Origin: Bacteroidales bacterium
GTDB lineage: Bacteria > Bacteroidota > Bacteroidia > Bacteroidales > UBA932
Assembly (NCBI GenBank): GCA_017529425.1
Contig: JAFXNQ010000024.1
Location: 1 to 43,735 of the forward strand
Direction: 5' to 3'
Length of the DNA stretch: 43,735 bases
The notes under the pieces were generated by a model, which did not search any database, had not been told where the DNA came from, and saw only the letters and a list, made by a program, of their open reading frames with translations. Each line of letters starts with the position of its first letter. The stretch's first letter is position 1. The position numbers and the translations under genes are program-made. This document shows positions 1 to 24,325 of this stretch, in pieces.

Positions 1-2571
1 TCATTGGCCCGCAGCCAGGACTACACGCTGGAGTTCTACAATCTCTGCGGTGGAGTCAAGTTTTCAGTGGCCGAGGCCGGAATAAAGTACGTAACCTTCA
101 GCGGTAATAATAATGAGCCTTTGGCTGGAAAGGTAGATGTAATCTTTAATGAAGATGGTAAACCAGTTGTGCAGACCGTGGTGGACGGGAAAACAGAACT
201 CCGTCTGGACGCTCCCGATGGAGGGACGTTCGAACCAGGCGAGTGGTATTACATAGTATCGCTACCCGCGACCCTCTCTGCAGGTTATACCATGACCTTC
301 TATAAAGACGAGAAGTATGCCGAGCGCGTCACTGACTCCTCCATATCCATTAAACGTGCCGTATGGGGATGCCTGGCCGATGCTGACGACGTCCCTGTCA
401 CTATTCCTTCTGCGGTTGACCTCGGTCTCCCGTCCGGCCTCAAGTGGGCATCATACAATGTTGGAGCATCCGCCCCCGAGGAGTACGGTGATTACTTCGC
501 CTGGGGCGAGACAGAGCCGAATTATACAAGTCAGAACCCAGTAACATGGAAAGACGGCACGACAGGATTCGACTGGGTGTCTTATAAGTTCCGCACCAGC
601 GGCAATTCATGGGATACTGTAAGATTCTCCAAGTACAATACATCCAGTTCTTGTGGACCAATTGACAATAAAACCATCCTCGACCTGGAAGATGACGCTG
701 CGTATATCAATTGGGGAGACAGCTGGAGAATACCAACTGACGATGAGTGGATAGAGTTAAGAACAGAATGTACCCGGACTTGGACTACTCAGAACGGAGT
801 CAGTGGATATCTTTTCACTGGTCCTAACAATAATAGTATATTCCTGCCCGCTACAGGTTCATGGGAAGGTGACAGCATATACGGTAATGGCTCTGACGGT
901 TACTATTGGTCTTCTTCCCTCGTTGTAAAAGGTCCGTACTCCGCATGGCGCTTCAATTTCAACGATGTCGACTTTGTTCGCGTGTGCACCCATGAACGAT
1001 TCTATGGGTCCGCTGTCCGTCCTGTCTCAGATGAGGGAGTCTGTGTCTCAGTGACAGGAGTTTCTATTAATGAGGGTAATATAGACCTTTTTGAGGGTGC
1101 AACAGCATCTTTGATTGCTACTGTAACACCTACAAATGCAACACAGCGCAATGTGATTTGGTCGTCCAGCAATACATCTGTCGCAACCGTTGATTATACA
1201 GGTAAGGTTACTGCCGTAGCTGTAGGAACAGCTGTCATCACGGCAACTACTTATGATGGCGGATATACGGCAGTAAGCATGGTTTCGGTCAAAGAACCTA
1301 CTGGTGGCACCATTGACCTAAGTGTAAACGGTACTGCAAACTGCTATGTTGTACCCAATTCTGGCGAATTCAGTTTTGACGCATCTGTTATGGGTAATGG
1401 TTCCGAAGGATATATCTGGGATGGCACCCAAGGGCAGGATATGAACCTGTGGCCGTACCAACAGGAGGATGTCTATTTCGAGACAGGTGATGTACTGCCG
1501 AGTAAGGCATTCGTCATCTGGGACGACAACGGCGTAATTACCGACGTTGTGTACAATGCCACGACAAAGAGAATTTCATTTACCGCTACGGGCAACAAGG
1601 GTAACGCCCTGATTGGTCTGTTTGATGAGAATTCTACAGAAACCGGCGCCAAGGCCAGCACAGATGACGCTTTATGGAGCTGGCATATCTGGTGCACCGA
1701 CACCCCTCAGATATTTATAATGTACGATGACAATGAATATGGATATGAAATAGTCGACCGTAACCTTGGTGCAATAAGCGCTGACTCAAACGCTGCTAAT
1801 ATAGAAGATACCTATGGCTTCTTCTATCAGTTTGGCCGTAAGGATCCCATCAGGGGATATGACGGAATAGCTGGAGACCAGAAACCGGCGATGACCGACC
1901 TTAAATATTCTGTGAATCATCCGACTTATTTCTTCAAGCTCAATACAACGACTGCAGAATGGTTCAACGAAGGAAGTTCGTCGCTACAAACCGTGTGTGC
2001 AGACCTTTGGGGCAATCCTGCTTGGAAGAATGCTACCACTACGAATCCCCATCCTTACCAGGCGCAGCCTGAAGAACTCAAGAAGACTATCTACGACCCA
2101 TGCCCTCCCGGATATATGGTTCCGCCCGAGACAATATGGACAGGTGTGGATCCTGAAACTGTAACCCTTGTAGAAAACGGTGTGATTGTGCCTACCTACA
2201 TTGAGATTAATGGTATGAGTAAGCCTAACCCATCCGGTAGCTTCTATCCGTTCGCAGGCTATATATCTGATGTGAACTCTTGGGAAGATAACACGGGTTA
2301 TTTCGGGTACAATGGATGCACAATTACCGGACGTGAATCCAGGGCCGCGAGGGTGTACAGTTCTTATACAGGTCTCCAATCCCCGTGGGCTCAGGAACAA
2401 GCACAAAACCATTACGGCGGATGCAGCCTCAGTGTACATTTTAATGATGGAGACACTGAGTACCTCAAAGTTGAGCCTATGTACCAGAGTAATCGCCAGA
2501 ATGGATATAATGTCCGTTGTATGAGGGGGTTAATCGTGCCCGTTATACCAGACTTTGATGTTCAACTGTAG
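1..2571 (+). CDS. Modular surface protein (fimbrillin-like, FISUMP, BIG2), 5'-truncated by the window edge
   Basis: The reading frame is open at base 1, so the true start lies outside the window. The first residues match residues ~143 onward of the lipoprotein at 20007-22613, so a lipoprotein signal and about 140 residues are probably missing. Blocks in order: the end of a fimbrillin-like domain (nt 4-400); a FISUMP domain (nt 400-1040) with YWSSS and a closing VRPV; a bacterial Ig-like BIG2 domain (nt 1050-1300, ending in an Ala/Val/Thr-rich strand); and a long C-terminal domain (nt 1315-2550) with WSWHIWCTD, DRNLGA and FGRKDP, typical of Bacteroidales surface proteins. Over nt 5-400 the DNA is closely similar (I estimate about 85%) to 20434-20830. 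Likely outer-membrane anchored and surface exposed; the ligand is unknown. Confidence 0.85.
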   Translation, partial: SLARSQDYTLEFYNLCGGVKFSVAEAGIKYVTFSGNNNEPLAGKVDVIFNEDGKPVVQTVVDGKTELRLDAPDGGTFEPGEWYYIVSLPATLSAGYTMTFYKDEKYAERVTDSSISIKRAVWGCLADADDVPVTIPSAVDLGLPSGLKWASYNVGASAPEEYGDYFAWGETEPNYTSQNPVTWKDGTTGFDWVSYKFRTSGNSWDTVRFSKYNTSSSCGPIDNKTILDLEDDAAYINWGDSWRIPTDDEWIELRTECTRTWTTQNGVSGYLFTGPNNNSIFLPATGSWEGDSIYGNGSDGYYWSSSLVVKGPYSAWRFNFNDVDFVRVCTHERFYGSAVRPVSDEGVCVSVTGVSINEGNIDLFEGATASLIATVTPTNATQRNVIWSSSNTSVATVDYTGKVTAVAVGTAVITATTYDGGYTAVSMVSVKEPTGGTIDLSVNGTANCYVVPNSGEFSFDASVMGNGSEGYIWDGTQGQDMNLWPYQQEDVYFETGDVLPSKAFVIWDDNGVITDVVYNATTKRISFTATGNKGNALIGLFDENSTETGAKASTDDALWSWHIWCTDTPQIFIMYDDNEYGYEIVDRNLGAISADSNAANIEDTYGFFYQFGRKDPIRGYDGIAGDQKPAMTDLKYSVNHPTYFFKLNTTTAEWFNEGSSSLQTVCADLWGNPAWKNATTTNPHPYQAQPEELKKTIYDPCPPGYMVPPETIWTGVDPETVTLVENGVIVPTYIEINGMSKPNPSGSFYPFAGYISDVNSWEDNTGYFGYNGCTITGRESRAARVYSSYTGLQSPWAQEQAQNHYGGCSLSVHFNDGDTEYLKVEPMYQSNRQNGYNVRCMRGLIVPVIPDFDVQL

Positions 2572-4250: not shown

Positions 4251-5016
4251 TCACCTTGAAGATGTACGTGATGGTACCTTCCTGGGCCTCCGGGGCGGTG
4301 CGGGATACATTGAAAAGGGCGCCGAGGGCGGCCTTGCGGGCGCTTTCGCGTAAGTGTTTGTCGGAGATTGTTGTGCCGGGGGCGCCGGCCACGGCAGAAA
4401 TGACCTTGCCCTCCTGGTTAACCAGGATCTTTACGACGATTCTGCCGCCGTCACCAGATTCAAATACCGGCAAGGGGAGTGATCCCACAACGGAGCGTCC
4501 TTCCAGTTTGGCGGAGGGTTCGCTTTCCGGATTGCCGACTTTGGTGTTGCCCTGGGAGTGGCCAGCAGTGAGCTTTTCTGAAATCTTCTCTGCCACCTGC
4601 TGTGCCAGGGTGTCTTTGTCTGTGTTCTGGGCAGAACTGAACAGGGCCCGCCTGTTGATCTCTTTCTCGCGCGGCGGCTCCGGAACCTCTACGTCGCCTT
4701 TATCTCCAACGGTACTCTCCTGACTCAGGTTTGGACGTTTGGCAACTGTCCGGGCCTCTGACTTCTGTACGAGTTTTACGGGCTGCTTTGGCTGGGGTAC
4801 CTCGGTGCGGGGCTCTTTGCCGGCCTTCACCTCTATCTTCTGTGGCTCCAGCTTTGGCAGCTCTTCCGGCTCCATGTCTATCAGGATCTCAGTGTCGCGG
4901 GGTTTGACCGTCGGGGAGATGGTCATGAATGAGCAGAATATGAACAGGAACAAGGAGAAGCCTATCGCAGACATTGTCCCGATAAACTTTGCTCTTGATT
5001 CATATCCGTAGTACAT
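4246..5016 (-). CDS. TonB-family energy transducer
   Basis: A 256-residue protein with one N-terminal membrane anchor (residues ~12-33), a Pro/Glu/Lys-rich periplasmic spacer (~45-130) and a C-terminal TonB domain (~185-256) beginning near GGRIVVKILVNQEGK and ending ITYIFKVR. TonB proteins carry energy from the inner-membrane proton channel to outer-membrane transporters such as SusC-type receptors. The gene is last in the exbB-exbD-tonB set, 20 bp after exbD, so the three are probably co-transcribed and form one complex. The C-terminal domain lacks the classical E. coli YP motif, as is common in Bacteroidota TonB paralogs. Which receptors it serves cannot be told from sequence. Confidence 0.88.
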   Translation of the reverse strand: MYYGYESRAKFIGTMSAIGFSLFLFIFCSFMTISPTVKPRDTEILIDMEPEELPKLEPQKIEVKAGKEPRTEVPQPKQPVKLVQKSEARTVAKRPNLSQESTVGDKGDVEVPEPPREKEINRRALFSSAQNTDKDTLAQQVAEKISEKLTAGHSQGNTKVGNPESEPSAKLEGRSVVGSLPLPVFESGDGGRIVVKILVNQEGKVISAVAGAPGTTISDKHLRESARKAALGALFNVSRTAPEAQEGTITYIFKVR

Positions 5017-20006: not shown

Positions 20007-22613
20007 ATGAAGAAAATCTATATAGCGTTTATGACTGTCGCAGCCCTGGCTGCCATATCGTGTAACACTAAAGAAGAGTACGGAAGCCTTCCTGCAGGGA
20101 AGGTGATGTTCACAGCTGTCCAGGCAGATAATCCAGAATCGAAAACGATACTCCAGAGCGATGGCTCTGTATTCTGGAGTGCCGACGACTCCATTAATCT
20201 GTTCTATGGAACAGCCGGTTCCGCAAAGTTAATTTCCAACAATTCTGAACCGGCACAACAGACTACATTCTCCGGCTCGCTGGGAGGATACAACCACAAT
20301 GGCAGTGATTATTTCCACGCGGTGTATCCATACAGCGCAGAAAACACATTCGACGGTACAGCTTTCACTGTTACCCTCCCTGAAGTTCAGAGTTCGGTGG
20401 CAGGCAGCTTCGCAGATGACCTGTTTATCTCAATGGCCCGCAGCCAAGACTACACGTTGCAGTTTTACAACCTCTGCGGCGGAGTTAAGTTTTCAGTTTC
20501 AGAAGCCGGGATAAAGTATGTCACCTTCAGAGGTAATAACAATGAACCGCTGGCCGGCAAGGTCAATGTAAGCTTTAATGATGATGGCAAACCAGTGGTT
20601 CAGACTGTGGTTGATGGGAAAACAGAGCTACGTCTGGATGCCCCCAATGGCGGAACCTTCGAGCCCGGTGAGTGGTACTATATGGTATCGCTACCCGCGA
20701 CCCTCTCTGCAGGCTATACCATGGCTTTCTATAAAGACGAGAAGTTTGCTGAGCGCGTCACCGATTCCTCCATATCCATCAAACGTGCCGTCTGGGGCCG
20801 CCTTACAAATGCCGATGGCATCCCGGACATTACTCCGCCCAACAACGAAATTTGGTATACTTCCACTGATGGGAACATAGTGACACCGACTGATGATTCG
20901 GGTTTCGGTGCAAACATTGTTTCCAACACGTATTCAAATGGAAAAGGTATCATCAAGTTTGATGGAGATGTTACGGAGGTGGGTAATGAAACTTCAAAGA
21001 TAAGTGGCAGCCCCAACCCATTCTATAATTGCAGGACACTGAAAACGATGAGTCTTCCTTCAAGTGTACGAAAGATAGGCTATGCAGCTTTCGGGTATTG
21101 TATCCACCTTACTTCCCTGACCCTTCCGGATGCTTTGGATTATCTGGGTCCAGGCATTGTGTCCAAAGCCCTAATTACCAGCATTCATATTCCTACATCA
21201 ACTATCATTGACGGTAATCCAATTTACTGGTGTGAAGATTTGGAAGAGTTTACCGGTCCCTATTCGGCATTAGATGGCCACATTCTCATAAAGGATAACG
21301 TATTGATATCGTGTACTCCTAAAGGAATCACTTCGGTGACTGTCCCGAATACCGTGACATTTATTGGAAAGTCGGCTTTTATTGACTGCAGTAATCTTAC
21401 TAGCGTTTCTATACCAAGCGGTGTTACAACTATAGGTAACGGTGCTTTTATGCGCTGTACTGGGCTTCAGACACTGATGCTTCCTGAATCGGTGACCTAT
21501 GCGGAGTTTAATGCTTTTACCGGATGCTCTTCCCTGACCAGTTTCCACGTTCCTTCGGAGATGGAGTTTCAGGGTGTCCCTTTTGATGACTGCACGTCAC
21601 TTGCCGAGTTTACTGGTCGCTATGCCAGCGATGATCATCGCTGCCTTGTAGAAGGTAGCAAACTCATTGCGTTTGCTCCTGCCGGATTGACAAGCTATAC
21701 AGTTCCGGATGGTATAACATACATGGCTGGCGGTTTTTCTAATGTGAATAATTTGGTTTCATTGGAAATACCCAGTACTGTCACACAGATAACGAGAATT
21801 GTAAGTTCATCCCTGACCACACTTACTTGCAGGAGCGTCTCGCCACCCAAAGTTTCTTATGCGGGTAACACCGGACTTGCTTACCTACGGGCACTGGAGA
21901 CAATATATGTTCCCGCAGGTAGTGTAGATGCCTACAAGGTAGCCGCCTGTTGGAACGCATATGCGGACCGGATTCAGGCAATTCCGGATAACACTATACC
22001 TGAGGCAGTGGATTTGGGGCTGACTTCCGGCCTGAAGTGGGCGACCTGCAATGTCGGTGCGAACGCTCCCGAGGAGTACGGAGATTACTTCGCTTGGGGT
22101 GAAACAGAGCCGTATTACAGCAGCCAGGACCCGTTGACTTGGAAAAACGGCAAGACAGGCTATAACTGGGCATCATACAAATGGTGCAACGGATCTTACT
22201 CGACTCTCACAAAATACAATTATAGCAGCTCCTACGGCACCGTTGATAACGAGTACATACTTGTTCCGGAGGACGACGCGGCTGCAGCAAATTGGGGAGG
22301 CTCTTGGCGTATGCCGACTGACGCAGAATGGACAGAGTTGAGGACAGAATGCACCTGGACCTGGACAACACAGAACGGAGTGAACGGCAGGCTCGTGACC
22401 GGGCCTAACGGCAACAGCATATTCCTGCCCGCTGCCGGCAGCCGGGGCGGTACCGGCCTCAGCTATGCGGGGTCCTGCGGCTTCTACTGGTCCTCTTCCC
22501 TCGATACGGACTACCCGGACTTCGCGTTCGACGTGTTCTTCGATTCGGTCAATGTCTACAGGTACGACGGCTACCGCTTCGGCGGGCAATCGGTTCGTCC
22601 TGTCACAGAATAA
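20007..22613 (+). CDS. Surface lipoprotein: fimbrillin-like, BspA LRR block, FISUMP domain with DGR-like variable end
   Basis: An 868-residue lipoprotein. The signal peptide ends in lipobox Cys19 (AAISC). A fimbrillin-like domain (~30-270) is shared with the truncated gene at 1-2571. One BspA-type LRR block (~277-657) is bracketed by NNEIWYTSTD and YADRIQAIP. A C-terminal FISUMP domain (~662-868) begins AVDLGLTSGLKWA and includes GDYFAWGE, SWRMPTDAEW and YWSSS. FISUMP domains resemble C-type-lectin-like and sulfatase-modifying folds and occur as targets of diversity-generating retroelements in Bacteroidetes. The last ~50 codons are rich in NNC codons at positions where relatives carry Asn, as expected of a variable region. 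It shares an operon with the lipoprotein upstream. Confidence 0.9.
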   Translation: MKKIYIAFMTVAALAAISCNTKEEYGSLPAGKVMFTAVQADNPESKTILQSDGSVFWSADDSINLFYGTAGSAKLISNNSEPAQQTTFSGSLGGYNHNGSDYFHAVYPYSAENTFDGTAFTVTLPEVQSSVAGSFADDLFISMARSQDYTLQFYNLCGGVKFSVSEAGIKYVTFRGNNNEPLAGKVNVSFNDDGKPVVQTVVDGKTELRLDAPNGGTFEPGEWYYMVSLPATLSAGYTMAFYKDEKFAERVTDSSISIKRAVWGRLTNADGIPDITPPNNEIWYTSTDGNIVTPTDDSGFGANIVSNTYSNGKGIIKFDGDVTEVGNETSKISGSPNPFYNCRTLKTMSLPSSVRKIGYAAFGYCIHLTSLTLPDALDYLGPGIVSKALITSIHIPTSTIIDGNPIYWCEDLEEFTGPYSALDGHILIKDNVLISCTPKGITSVTVPNTVTFIGKSAFIDCSNLTSVSIPSGVTTIGNGAFMRCTGLQTLMLPESVTYAEFNAFTGCSSLTSFHVPSEMEFQGVPFDDCTSLAEFTGRYASDDHRCLVEGSKLIAFAPAGLTSYTVPDGITYMAGGFSNVNNLVSLEIPSTVTQITRIVSSSLTTLTCRSVSPPKVSYAGNTGLAYLRALETIYVPAGSVDAYKVAACWNAYADRIQAIPDNTIPEAVDLGLTSGLKWATCNVGANAPEEYGDYFAWGETEPYYSSQDPLTWKNGKTGYNWASYKWCNGSYSTLTKYNYSSSYGTVDNEYILVPEDDAAAANWGGSWRMPTDAEWTELRTECTWTWTTQNGVNGRLVTGPNGNSIFLPAAGSRGGTGLSYAGSCGFYWSSSLDTDYPDFAFDVFFDSVNVYRYDGYRFGGQSVRPVTE
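22440..22607 (+). other. Candidate DGR variable region at the 3' end of the FISUMP gene
   Basis: Within codons 22440-22586 about 20 codons have the form NNC (GGC, AGC, TGC, TTC, TAC, GAC, GTC). They alternate with invariant codons (TGG, TCC, CTC, CCG, GCG, AGG, CGC). This is what adenine-directed mutagenesis of AAC codons yields. A conserved, adenine-poor end follows (GGGCAATCGGTTCGTCCTG), as expected of an initiation-of-mutagenic-homing type sequence. No template copy lies in the window. Confidence 0.55.
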
Positions 22614-22615
22614 AG

Positions 22616-22643
22616 GGCAGTCTTGGGCGTAGCCCGGACTGCC
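22616..22643 (+). repeat. Hairpin directly after the candidate variable region
   Basis: GGCAGTC / GACTGCC form the outer stem. TT opposite G is an internal bulge. GGGC / GCCC form the inner stem around a GTA loop. It begins three bases after the stop codon. DGR targets often carry a short hairpin or cruciform just past the variable region that assists retrohoming; a transcription terminator is less likely because no T-run follows. Confidence 0.6.
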
Positions 22644-22644
22644 A

Positions 22645-22723
22645 GCTGCCGGCGGATGCGGGCAGCATCAAAACCTCCCGTCTTGGGGGCGACAGCCCCC
22701 CGAAAAATACGGCCTGTGGCCGT
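22645..22723 (+). repeat. Three further hairpins in tandem
   Basis: GCTGCC / GGCAGC (22645-22666, 10-nt loop), GGGGGC / GCCCCC (22685-22700, GACA loop) and ACGGCC / GGCCGT (22709-22723, TGT loop) follow one another. Each GC-rich stem is six base pairs. The last two are each followed by an A-rich run, not by T. Together with 22616-22643 they form a structured strip of about 110 bp between the variable gene and the MutS-like gene. Confidence 0.6.
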
Positions 22724-22739
22724 CAAAAAATATTGGACG

Positions 22740-23003
22740 ATGACGAAACTTGAAATATGCAGGATGGAAGACGCCAATCCGGGCATGATTTACCTCTACC
22801 CGGAAGGCGCCTTTTACAAGGCATACCAGAAGAGCGCCTGGCTCCTGTGTACAAGGGTGCATCCGTTCAAGGTGAGCGCCCGGCCTCTCAAGGGTCTTGA
22901 CGGCCCGTTGCTGAGCGTCGGGTTCCCCCAGTCATCGCTGGACAAGTTTTCCGCCGCCAGCGCGAGAACACGTTTTGTAAAGCGCTCTTTTACAGGCTTA
23001 TAA
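22740..23003 (+). CDS. Short MutS-domain-I-like protein (DGR accessory 'MSL' type)
   Basis: An 87-residue protein from the ATG at 22740. Residues ~12-72 align by eye with the mismatch-recognition domain I of MutS. NPGMIYLYPEGAFYKAYQKSAW corresponds to the [21 protein letters not shown] region, and LLSVGFPQSSLDKF to the PMAGIPYHAVENYL region. Stand-alone MutS-like (MSL) genes are reported as accessory genes of Bacteroidetes diversity-generating retroelements; Avd and HRDC are the other accessory classes. The product stops soon after the second motif and may be truncated. The next genes expected in a complete cassette, a template repeat and a reverse transcriptase, are absent. The frame is open 39 codons further upstream through the hairpins, but similarity begins at this ATG. 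Confidence 0.6.
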   Translation: MTKLEICRMEDANPGMIYLYPEGAFYKAYQKSAWLLCTRVHPFKVSARPLKGLDGPLLSVGFPQSSLDKFSAASARTRFVKRSFTGL

Positions 23004-23565
23004 CAATTCCGGATATGCTTTATCTCCGCCACAGGACTGGTTAAAGCGTGTCCTGCTCACGCATATATCTGTATTTCAAGAGGTTACCAAAATCGCAGAT
23101 GCTCTTGTGCTTGGATTGACCGCATTTGACAGTGCGTTTCGGGCTTTCATTATTGCCGCCTTATCCTGTCCTGCCAGAGCGCCGGGAGATCCGCGGCGGT
23201 CACACCCATCCCGTGCGGCAGTGCTCGTCACTAGGACTTTAGGAAGGAAAAAGGTTGCGCTCCCGCCAAAGTTTCTTGGAGCCCATAACAAACCGTAGGG
23301 GCGCTTTGGCTGGCCCTGCCCGTGTTTTTTGTCCAAAAGACAGTCGCCATCGTAACGCTCGCGCGTCGGATTGCAGAACAGCCGGCGCGGAGCGGCGGAG
23401 TTACAGCATTTCCAAAAAAGCAGAACTGTTTCTGAAAAAACTTTTTCTGTTTCGCGCCTCTCAATACTTCAGATTTTGAGAATTTGTCGCACGCGATGGC
23501 GGGGCCTCGTGCTATCTTGCGAGCCTGTTATTAAACCTAAGATGATTCGCATAAAGAAGCAAAAG
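23004..23565. other. Intergenic stretch without a convincing gene, after the MutS-like gene
   Basis: Only short frames without recognisable motifs occur on either strand. The stretch occupies the place where a template repeat and reverse transcriptase would be expected. I looked on both strands for a copy of the variable-region core around TGGTCCTCTTCC and saw none. It may be a deletion scar or ordinary spacer. Confidence 0.5.
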
Positions 23566-23596
23566 TTGTAATATGTTACAAATCTATTTATATTTG
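23566..23596 (+). promoter_or_regulatory. Promoter of the toxin-antitoxin pair
   Basis: TTG (23566-23568), a 20-bp spacer and TATATTTG (23589-23596) match the Bacteroidota consensus. The expected start point is about 23600-23603, only a few bases before the toxin ATG at 23605, so the mRNA would be nearly leaderless. Confidence 0.7.
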
Positions 23597-23604
23597 TACG
23601 GGAG

Positions 23605-23934
23605 ATGAGGAAGATCTTGACTTACGGTGGGTTCTTTGAATCGTTCATTAAATATTTGCCTCAAGATGTCGTCAAGAAAATTGACTACGGACTTGTTTTG
23701 TTGAAAACTCAAGACAGAGTGCCGAGAAAATATGTAAAACACATAAAAGAAGGGCTTTATGAGTTGCGTACCGAATGGGAGGGAAATATTTATCGAGTTT
23801 TCTTCGTGTTTGATAAAGGCAATATTGTAGTGCTCTTCAATGGCTTCCATAAAAAGGGCCAAAAGACGCCAAAGAAAGAGATAGAAAAAGCAATAAGAAT
23901 AATGAAAGATTATTATGAAACATGTAAACGATAA
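23605..23934 (+). CDS. HigB/RelE-superfamily toxin (phage Gp49-like)
   Basis: A 109-residue basic protein of the phage-derived Gp49-like/HigB family within the RelE/ParE superfamily. The core pattern LPQDVVKKIDYGLVLLKT...VPRKYVKHIKEGLYELRTEWEGNIYRVFFVFDKGNIVVLFNGFHKKGQKTPKKEIEKA is present across residues ~18-98. Its elements are GLYELR, the YRVFF strand, LFNGFHKK and a final TPKKEI helix. Members cleave mRNA at the ribosome. The toxin gene precedes its antitoxin, as in higBA, and the two overlap by 20 bp. A good promoter lies directly upstream. Confidence 0.9.
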   Translation: MRKILTYGGFFESFIKYLPQDVVKKIDYGLVLLKTQDRVPRKYVKHIKEGLYELRTEWEGNIYRVFFVFDKGNIVVLFNGFHKKGQKTPKKEIEKAIRIMKDYYETCKR

Positions 23935-24217
23935 ACAGATCAGAGACTACGATGCAGTGCTGGATGCTAAATATGGTGCGCCAGGAACACCAGAACGCAC
24001 CCAGTTTGAAGAAGAAGCATACTCTTTTTACTCAGGACAAATTATACGGGATATTAGAAAGGAGGCTGGTGTTACACAGTCTGAACTCGCAGATAAAATT
24101 GGCGCAGACAAGAGTTATGTGTCCCGGGTGGAGAGGGGAGAAATCATGCCCAGTGTAGGAACCTTTTACCGCATTATCGCAGCACTCGGCTTCAGAGTGC
24201 AACTGACAAACCAATAG
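23915..24217 (+). CDS. HigA-type antitoxin with XRE helix-turn-helix
   Basis: A 100-residue protein. The N-terminal part (~1-40) is helical and probably neutralises the toxin. The C-terminal XRE helix-turn-helix (~43-97) reads IRKEAGVTQSELADKIGADKSYVSRVERGEIMP. It would bind its own promoter near 23566-23596 and repress the pair. The ATG lies inside the last 20 bp of the toxin gene, in a different frame. An intrinsic terminator follows within 10 bp of the stop codon. Confidence 0.92.
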   Translation: MKHVNDKQIRDYDAVLDAKYGAPGTPERTQFEEEAYSFYSGQIIRDIRKEAGVTQSELADKIGADKSYVSRVERGEIMPSVGTFYRIIAALGFRVQLTNQ

Positions 24218-24221
24218 AATT

Positions 24222-24257
24222 CAACAAAAAAACTCCGCAGCGCGGAGTTTTTTGTTG
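24222..24257. terminator. Bidirectional intrinsic terminator between the antitoxin and tRNA-Gln genes
   Basis: ACTCCGC / GCGGAGT with a 3-nt loop is flanked by an A-run on the left and a T-run on the right, and the outer bases CAAC / GTTG pair as well. It can stop transcripts from both convergent units. Its right edge touches the 3' end of the tRNA. Confidence 0.9.
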
Positions 24258-24325
24258 AGATATCAGGACTCGAACCCGAACCGAGAGAGCCAGAATCTCT
24301 AGTGCTACCATTACACCATATCTCA
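24255..24325 (-). tRNA. tRNA-Gln (anticodon CUG)
   Basis: The minus strand gives a 71-nt cloverleaf. The acceptor stem TGAGATA/TATCTCA and discriminator A are clear. The D arm contains GGTAG. The anticodon stem AGAGA/TCTCT encloses TTCTGGC, giving CUG, and the T arm contains GGTTCGAGTCC. CCA is not encoded. A well-spaced promoter lies directly upstream. Confidence 0.95.

What the first reader, a model, noticed from the sequence alone, without database searches (positions are those of the whole stretch)
22440..22607. DGR-like variable region at the end of a surface lipoprotein
The last ~50 codons of the FISUMP domain contain about 20 NNC codons (GGC, AGC, TGC, TTC, TAC, GAC, GTC), interspersed with fixed codons. 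AAC or AAT remains only once. Diversity-generating retroelements mutate adenines of a template, so AAC codons spread into exactly this set. FISUMP domains are among known Bacteroidetes DGR target types. The homologous domain at nt 400-1040 uses mixed third bases and lacks this pattern.
Basis: partly seen in the sequence, partly recalled or inferred. Interest (0 to 1): 0.85.

Follow-up and report, generated by a model that had tools for sequence, protein, structure and literature searches.

The report
Remote retroelement-diversified end of surface lipoprotein
The end of this surface-protein gene in an uncultured Bacteroidales bacterium has been rewritten at the adenines of a template by a known kind of mutation machine, a diversity-generating retroelement, whose template and enzyme lie on another contig of the same draft genome.

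Summary
The window's own draft genome has a complete diversity-generating retroelement (DGR) on contig C55: target, MutS-I-like gene, Avd-like gene, template repeat (TR), reverse transcriptase. The TR is a second copy of window 22421-22611: 34 of 57 template adenines differ, against 15 of 134 other positions (p=1.4e-11). All 17 in-frame AAC codons of the TR read as other NNC codons in the window. Two covarying hairpins, a known feature of DGR targets, follow the window VR and are not seen after three TRs. The syntenic VR of a sister species differs at 36 of 57 adenine columns but 5 of 134 others. So this is a remote (trans) DGR variable region. Qualification: it differs from today's TR at 14 of 132 non-adenine sites, against 1 and 0 for two other VRs of the genome; it was probably last rewritten from an older or sister template, which I did not find. 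Present activity is untested. A new member of a known kind. Side finding: the DGR reverse transcriptases of this genus carry degenerate tandem copies of their catalytic YxDD region.

The parts
20007..22613 (+). Target gene: 868-aa lipoprotein-like surface protein, BspA-type LRRs, Lcl_C/FISUMP-like C-terminal domain
   Evidence: lipoprotein signal judged by eye
22002..22610 (+). Lcl_C (formerly DUF1566, recalled)/FISUMP-like domain that carries the variable region
   Evidence: Lcl_C E=1.4e-4, below Pfam cut-off; 45-74% identical to 10 other copies, 8 of them from 8 other records
22421..22611 (+). Variable region (VR)
   Evidence: gapless match to TR C55:44269-44079; A 34/57 and non-A 15/134 differ
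22616..22643 (+). Hairpin 1 right after the stop codon (possible homing-site cruciform)
22645..22666 (+). Hairpin 2
22685..22700 (+). Third short hairpin, not part of the covariation count
22740..23003 (+). ORF of 87 aa with MutS_I-like (MSL) start, residues 1-73 like the cassette's MSL, then diverging; no Avd after it
   Evidence: MutS_I E=0.0079, below cut-off; 92% identity over residues 1-73
412..1032 (+). Second domain of the same family in the window (ORF 4-2571), without clear recent TR match
   Evidence: 61% identical; Lcl_C E=7.9e-5 in that ORF, below cut-off

Best explanation
Window 22421-22611 is a remote (trans) variable region of a diversity-generating retroelement. By the established mechanism, the RT with Avd (and an MSL protein) copies RNA of a non-coding template repeat and puts random bases opposite template adenines; the mutated cDNA then replaces the VR at the 3' end of a surface lipoprotein gene, at a site marked by the VR 3' end and the hairpins behind it. 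AAC-rich template codons become NNC codons, so no stop can arise there and many residues can. Shown here: the cassette on C55, the adenine-specific TR/VR relation, the hairpins, other targets in the genome. Inferred: mutagenic homing itself, surface display, ligand binding. The window VR was most likely last fully rewritten from an older or sister form of the template (about 0.7), and whether it is still a substrate is open.
For: TR beside the only RVT_1 ORF of the own genome; RT has the DGR motif IGNLTSQ and an intact YVDD (motif rule from PMC3521204); Avd-like ORF and MSL. TR vs window VR: A 34/57, non-A 15/134, p=1.4e-11; hypergeometric 1.4e-11. All 17 TR AAC codons changed, each still NNC. 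In the same genome C55 differs at 29/56 A and 1/132 other, remote C17 at 28/56 and 0/132: action in trans on C17 is well supported. Window vs syntenic G006 VR: 36/57 A columns, 5/134 other, scaffold 51/407. Hairpins: z=-4.49, 28 doubly changed cells against 10.5 in shuffles, 0 of 500.
Against: The window VR differs from today's TR at 14 of 132 non-A core sites, six differences in the last 26 bases against 1 and 0 for C55 and C17. No template of its own type was found. The low non-A divergence from G006 could be constraint. C55 is one contig of a draft genome: in G000 the cassette is followed by ribosomal-protein ORFs (by eye), in G006 and G014 by other genes, so a chimeric or misbinned contig is not excluded. 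No population data, no activity data. The structure model gave no C-type-lectin match.
Confidence: 0.92

Rival explanations
1. Fossil target: the VR was diversified by a DGR in the past, but its template type was lost or drifted, so the sequence is now fixed and evolves as an ordinary gene. This is a rival on present activity only, not on origin.
For: 14 of 132 non-A core differences from today's TR, against 1 and 0 for C55 and C17; six in the last 26 bases; no template of its type found. T. denticola SP32 has a remote target that fits another TR type and is read as a leftover (PMC4891356, passages seen).
Against: Reading frame and both hairpins are intact; the syntenic VR of G006 differs at 36/57 adenine columns, so diversification of this type went on around or after the split of the two species; short TR/VR identity (8 bp or more) can suffice for the upstream step in BPP-1 (PMC3240598, passage seen).
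Confidence: 0.45
2. A second cassette with a template of the window's type exists in this genome but is missing from the draft assembly, and serves the window and C68 targets now.
For: Window, C68a, C68b and G006_C46 share many non-A bases that differ from today's TR; the genome is 92% complete in 68 contigs.
Against: Not seen in G006 (85% complete) or G014 (92%) either, nor by pattern in 398 family genomes, where the exact matches were the three known TRs. The pattern would miss a template that differs more in that stretch.
Confidence: 0.2
3. No DGR: codon bias or ordinary diversifying selection within a paralogous family.
For: The gene is part of a paralogous family, and NNC codons are common in it (230 of 809 outside the stretch).
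Against: It explains neither a non-coding copy beside an RT nor mismatches concentrated on one template base, nor C55 and C17 with 29 and 28 A mismatches but 1 and 0 others.
Confidence: 0.02

Closest known systems
Remote DGR targets of Treponema denticola (PMC4891356; passages seen)
   Same: One core cassette, several remote targets, many of them lipoproteins; one remote VR fits another TR type than the resident one.
   Different: HRDC accessory there; here MSL and Avd. Other phylum and other target proteins.
Remote variable proteins of cyanobacteria (PMC7517822; passages seen)
   Same: Dispersed domain copies with the VR at the gene's 3' end, grafted to differing N-termini.
   Different: CLec domains, mostly predicted cytosolic there; here a lipoprotein-like LRR protein.
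BPP-1 phage DGR target site (PMC3240598; abstract and passages seen; PMC12875486; passages seen)
   Same: GC-rich inverted repeat just after the VR in which pairing rather than sequence matters; Avd, TR and RT together.
   Different: Two consecutive hairpins here; bacterial genes instead of a phage tail gene; the window target is remote; a (GC)14-type IMH was not identified.
DUF1566-type DGR targets (PMC6642488; passages seen)
   Same: DUF1566 (old name of Lcl_C, recalled) is described there as the commonest Pfam domain in DGR targets; multiple VRs per TR are described.
   Different: Lcl_C similarity here is below Pfam's cut-off.

Membership tests
Diversity-generating retroelement (DGR) | RT of the DGR clade: (I/V/L)GxxxSQ in motif 4 and YxDD | tested here: met
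   IGNLTSQ and YVDD in the C55 RT; motif rule in PMC3521204. An insert precedes YVDD.
Diversity-generating retroelement (DGR) | TR near the RT, matching a VR with adenine-specific mismatches | tested here: met
   Cassette VR C55: A 29/56, non-A 1/132; remote C17: 28/56, 0/132; window: 34/56, 14/132.
Diversity-generating retroelement (DGR) | VR at the 3' end of a protein-coding target gene | tested here: met
   VR 22421-22611 ends at the stop codon 22611-22613.
Diversity-generating retroelement (DGR) | Accessory gene (Avd, HRDC or MSL) | tested here: met
   Avd-like: DivGenRetAVD E=4.1e-5 and bAvd E=0.0041, both below curated cut-off; PHROG Avd E=3.5e-6. MSL-like: MutS_I, below cut-off.
Diversity-generating retroelement (DGR) | Hairpin/cruciform just downstream of the VR | tested here: met
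   Window z=-4.49; hairpin 1 after 13 of 21 VRs compared and 0 of 3 TRs; covariation in 11 distinct rows.
Diversity-generating retroelement (DGR) | IMH/IMH* pair at the VR and TR 3' ends | tested here: inconclusive
   Last 26 bases: C55 1, C17 0, window 6 differences from the TR; no (GC)14-type element was looked for by a tool.
Diversity-generating retroelement (DGR) | C-type-lectin fold of the VR domain (usual, not defining) | tested here: inconclusive
   Model mean pLDDT 69, Foldseek best E=0.23.
Diversity-generating retroelement (DGR) | Target in cis, next to TR and RT (usual; remote targets are known) | tested here: not met
   The only TR match in the window is the VR itself; TR and RT are on C55.
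Diversity-generating retroelement (DGR) | Mutagenic retrohoming into this VR | not testable with these tools
   Needs reads of the species or an assay.

The most novel reading that the evidence does not exclude
One chromosomal DGR lineage of rumen-type Bacteroidales keeps a dispersed family of surface proteins diversified in trans while its template itself evolves, so that remote VRs such as this one preserve a record of earlier template types; and its RT has tandemly amplified the YxDD catalytic-motif region (about 3 to 5 degenerate units with one or two intact YVDD), possibly changing how the enzyme works.
Probability: 0.3. Interest if true: 0.55.

Novelty: new member of a known kind. Interest (0 to 1): 0.42.

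Why it matters
A prediction made from codon pattern alone was verified by finding the template on another contig. Contig-based surveys miss such targets: Roux et al. [quoted passage not shown] Codon pattern plus the covarying hairpins could flag remote targets without their template. The two classes of VR in one genome make template turnover, and what happens to remote targets when the template changes, directly testable.

Tried and rejected
Phage origin: no relative of the RT in viral contigs with a single-protein query that reaches close relatives only; the target domain has 4 relatives there, 35-54% identical. I scanned only 9 of the 118 listed window ORFs in Pfam; none is a phage structural family, one (23605-23934) hits Gp49, a family named as phage-derived.

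A second template of the window's type: the own-genome search found no better template than C55; a 33-base pattern with up to 2 mismatches in 398 family genomes gave 7 places in 4 genomes, the three exact ones being the known TRs; the G312 place (2 mismatches) was not followed up.

Structure: domain model mean pLDDT 69, Foldseek against PDB best E=0.23; sequence search of PDB gave 2 hits with E 0.19 and 0.5. No evidence either way.

Rows left out: one search listed 38 places; I compared 21 VR-like ones and 3 TRs for hairpins. The ungapped table has 17 VRs; C57, G014_C15, G014_C46 and G014_C45b are not in it (C57 is). Of 13 VRs with hairpin 1, C21 was dropped from the alignment because its second hairpin differs, and the identical C55 and G006_C25 were merged, leaving 11 rows. 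The structure counted was read from these same sequences, and its shuffles ignore relatedness.

Full report
The observation. ORF 20007-22613 encodes an 868-residue protein with a lipoprotein-like start (by eye) and BspA-type leucine-rich repeats. Its end is skewed as described: 33 of 55 codons in 22440-22607 end in C, against 230 of 809 in the rest of the gene (p=2.9e-6) and 48 of 139 in the upstream part of the domain (p=0.002); one AAC/AAT remains. The domain is better called Lcl_C-like: Lcl_C is hit at E=1.4e-4, below Pfam's cut-off; FISUMP models are hit only by related targets, also below cut-off.

The template. The window is G000:C6:1-43735 of a draft genome of 2.17 Mb in 68 contigs, 92% complete. 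RVT_1 matches lie in one ORF only, on C55. On the minus strand of C55 follow a target with VR, an MSL-like ORF, an Avd-like ORF, a non-coding TR and the RT. TR and window VR align without gaps over 191 bases: 34 of 57 template adenines differ and 15 of 134 other bases (p=1.4e-11); on the 188-base core 34 of 56 and 14 of 132. The 17 in-frame AAC codons of the TR are AGC, GGC, TGC, TTC, TAC or GAC in the window, none AAC. For comparison 15, 16 and 14 of the 17 are changed in C55, C17 and the G006 VR, and all 17 keep the final C in each. Window adenines became G (19) or T (15), never C; over ten VRs of three genomes the totals are G 127, T 126, C 33. PMC3521204 argues for essentially random exchange (passages seen), so this low C is at odds with it or reflects selection.

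Other targets. In the same genome the cassette VR (C55) differs at 29 of 56 A and 1 of 132 other positions; a remote one on C17, at the end of a 1264-residue ORF, at 28 of 56 and 0 of 132. Other-base differences of C68a, C68b and C21 are 19, 13 and 28 of 132, of C57 34 of 128. Action in trans is thus best supported by C17. The window VR belongs to another type that shares most of its non-A bases with C68a, C68b and a sister-species VR. Of 26 genomes in the genus, 8 have matches to the window VR at E<=1e-10, while the MSL/Avd query hits 3, so several genomes have VR-like domains without a detected cassette.

The sister species. In G006 the same chromosomal place (92.4% identity over 5475 aligned bases from about window 24530 on) has a different, 504-residue protein that shares the domain, the VR and about 100 following bases. 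The two VRs differ at 36 of 57 adenine columns and 5 of 134 others; the domain scaffold at 51 of 407. Low non-A divergence relative to the scaffold (p=0.003) fits rewriting from one template type but could be constraint.

The homing site. Right after the stop codon come hairpins at 22616-22643 and 22645-22666 (z=-4.49; 0 of 200 shuffles fold as well). Hairpin 1 was seen after 13 of 21 VRs compared and 0 of 3 TRs. In 11 distinct sequences 97.1% of cells pair and 28 cells are changed on both sides, against 10.5 in shuffles (0 of 500), and at most 1 when partners are slid. In BPP-1 a hairpin or cruciform in this place, by its pairing rather than its sequence, is needed for efficient homing (PMC3240598, abstract and passages seen).

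Accessory gene. Window 22740-23003 begins as a copy of the cassette's MSL gene: 92% identical over residues 1-73, then diverging; no Avd hit follows it. The C68 copy also matches over residues 1-73. This suggests that domain, VR, hairpins and part of MSL were copied together from a cassette. PMC10053308 names HRDC and MSL (PF01624) as known DGR accessories (passage seen).

How it works. By the established DGR mechanism: TR RNA, adenine-mutagenic reverse transcription, replacement of the VR. The relation to a template is shown; homing is inferred. I put about 0.7 on the last full rewrite being older than today's TR and roughly even odds on the locus still being a substrate.

Comparison. RT motifs, TR/VR relation, 3' position, accessory genes and hairpin were tested and met (accessory hits below curated cut-offs); IMH and fold are inconclusive; homing is untestable here; cis position is not met. 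Remote targets, and one fitting another TR type, are described for T. denticola, remote ones for cyanobacteria, multiple VRs in surveys. A full-text search for DGR with 'FISUMP' found 0 papers; DGR with 'DUF1566' found 4. Hence a new member of a known kind.

Side finding. The RTs of G000 and G006 carry, before the catalytic YVDD, an insert of degenerate copies of that same region (best self-match score 88; 500 shuffles at most 50), G014 a shorter one with two YVDD. The other 9 RTs in that alignment of 12 lack it. Tandem Repeats Finder reported nothing there. Between G000 and G006 the insert region (113 codons) has 3 changed-residue and 7 silent codon differences. In a model of the G006 RT, residues 257-333 have low confidence (pLDDT under 50) and no secondary structure, while the flanking palm with the last YVDD is confident. 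A search for DGR, reverse transcriptase, insertion and YxDD listed 4 papers; I saw passages of one, PMC3521204, and no such array in them.

Noticed in passing
L011:2446-3915 (-), L043:3698-5182, L044:2502-3824: DGR reverse transcriptases of this genus carry an in-frame insert of degenerate tandem copies of the YxDD region; 3 of 12 aligned RTs have it, and it is predicted as disordered.
   Followed up: partly
L011 about 4900-4925 (-), L043 about 2690-2710, L044 about 1565-1585: A G run between MSL and Avd is 7, 9 and 10 long in G000, G006 and G014; in G006 MSL and Avd are one ORF of 240 aa, in the others they are out of frame. Slippage, phase variation or assembly error.
   Followed up: no
VRs of G000, G006, G014: Exchanges at template adenines: G 127, T 126, C 33 over ten VRs; none to C in the window VR.
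   Followed up: no
window 20007-24325 and L042:7100-9900: Same chromosomal place in the sister species holds a different N-terminal part on the same VR domain and a different small two-gene pair: Gp49-like and HTH ORFs in the window, AbrB-like and PIN-like ORFs by eye in G006; tRNA-Gln at 24254-24325 in the window.
   Followed up: partly
L085, L086, L088, L089, L090, L091: In these more distant relatives an Asn-rich TR-like stretch reads in frame into the RT ORF (by eye).
   Followed up: no
L011 and flanks of L043, L044: The G000 cassette is followed by ribosomal-protein ORFs (L16, L29; by eye), those of G006 and G014 by other shared genes: cassette relocation or a chimeric contig.
   Followed up: no
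G000:C19:104-138 and 240-437: A contig start with only the VR 3' end (35 bases identical to the window) and an MSL fragment, without Avd, TR or RT in the first 4 kb.
   Followed up: partly
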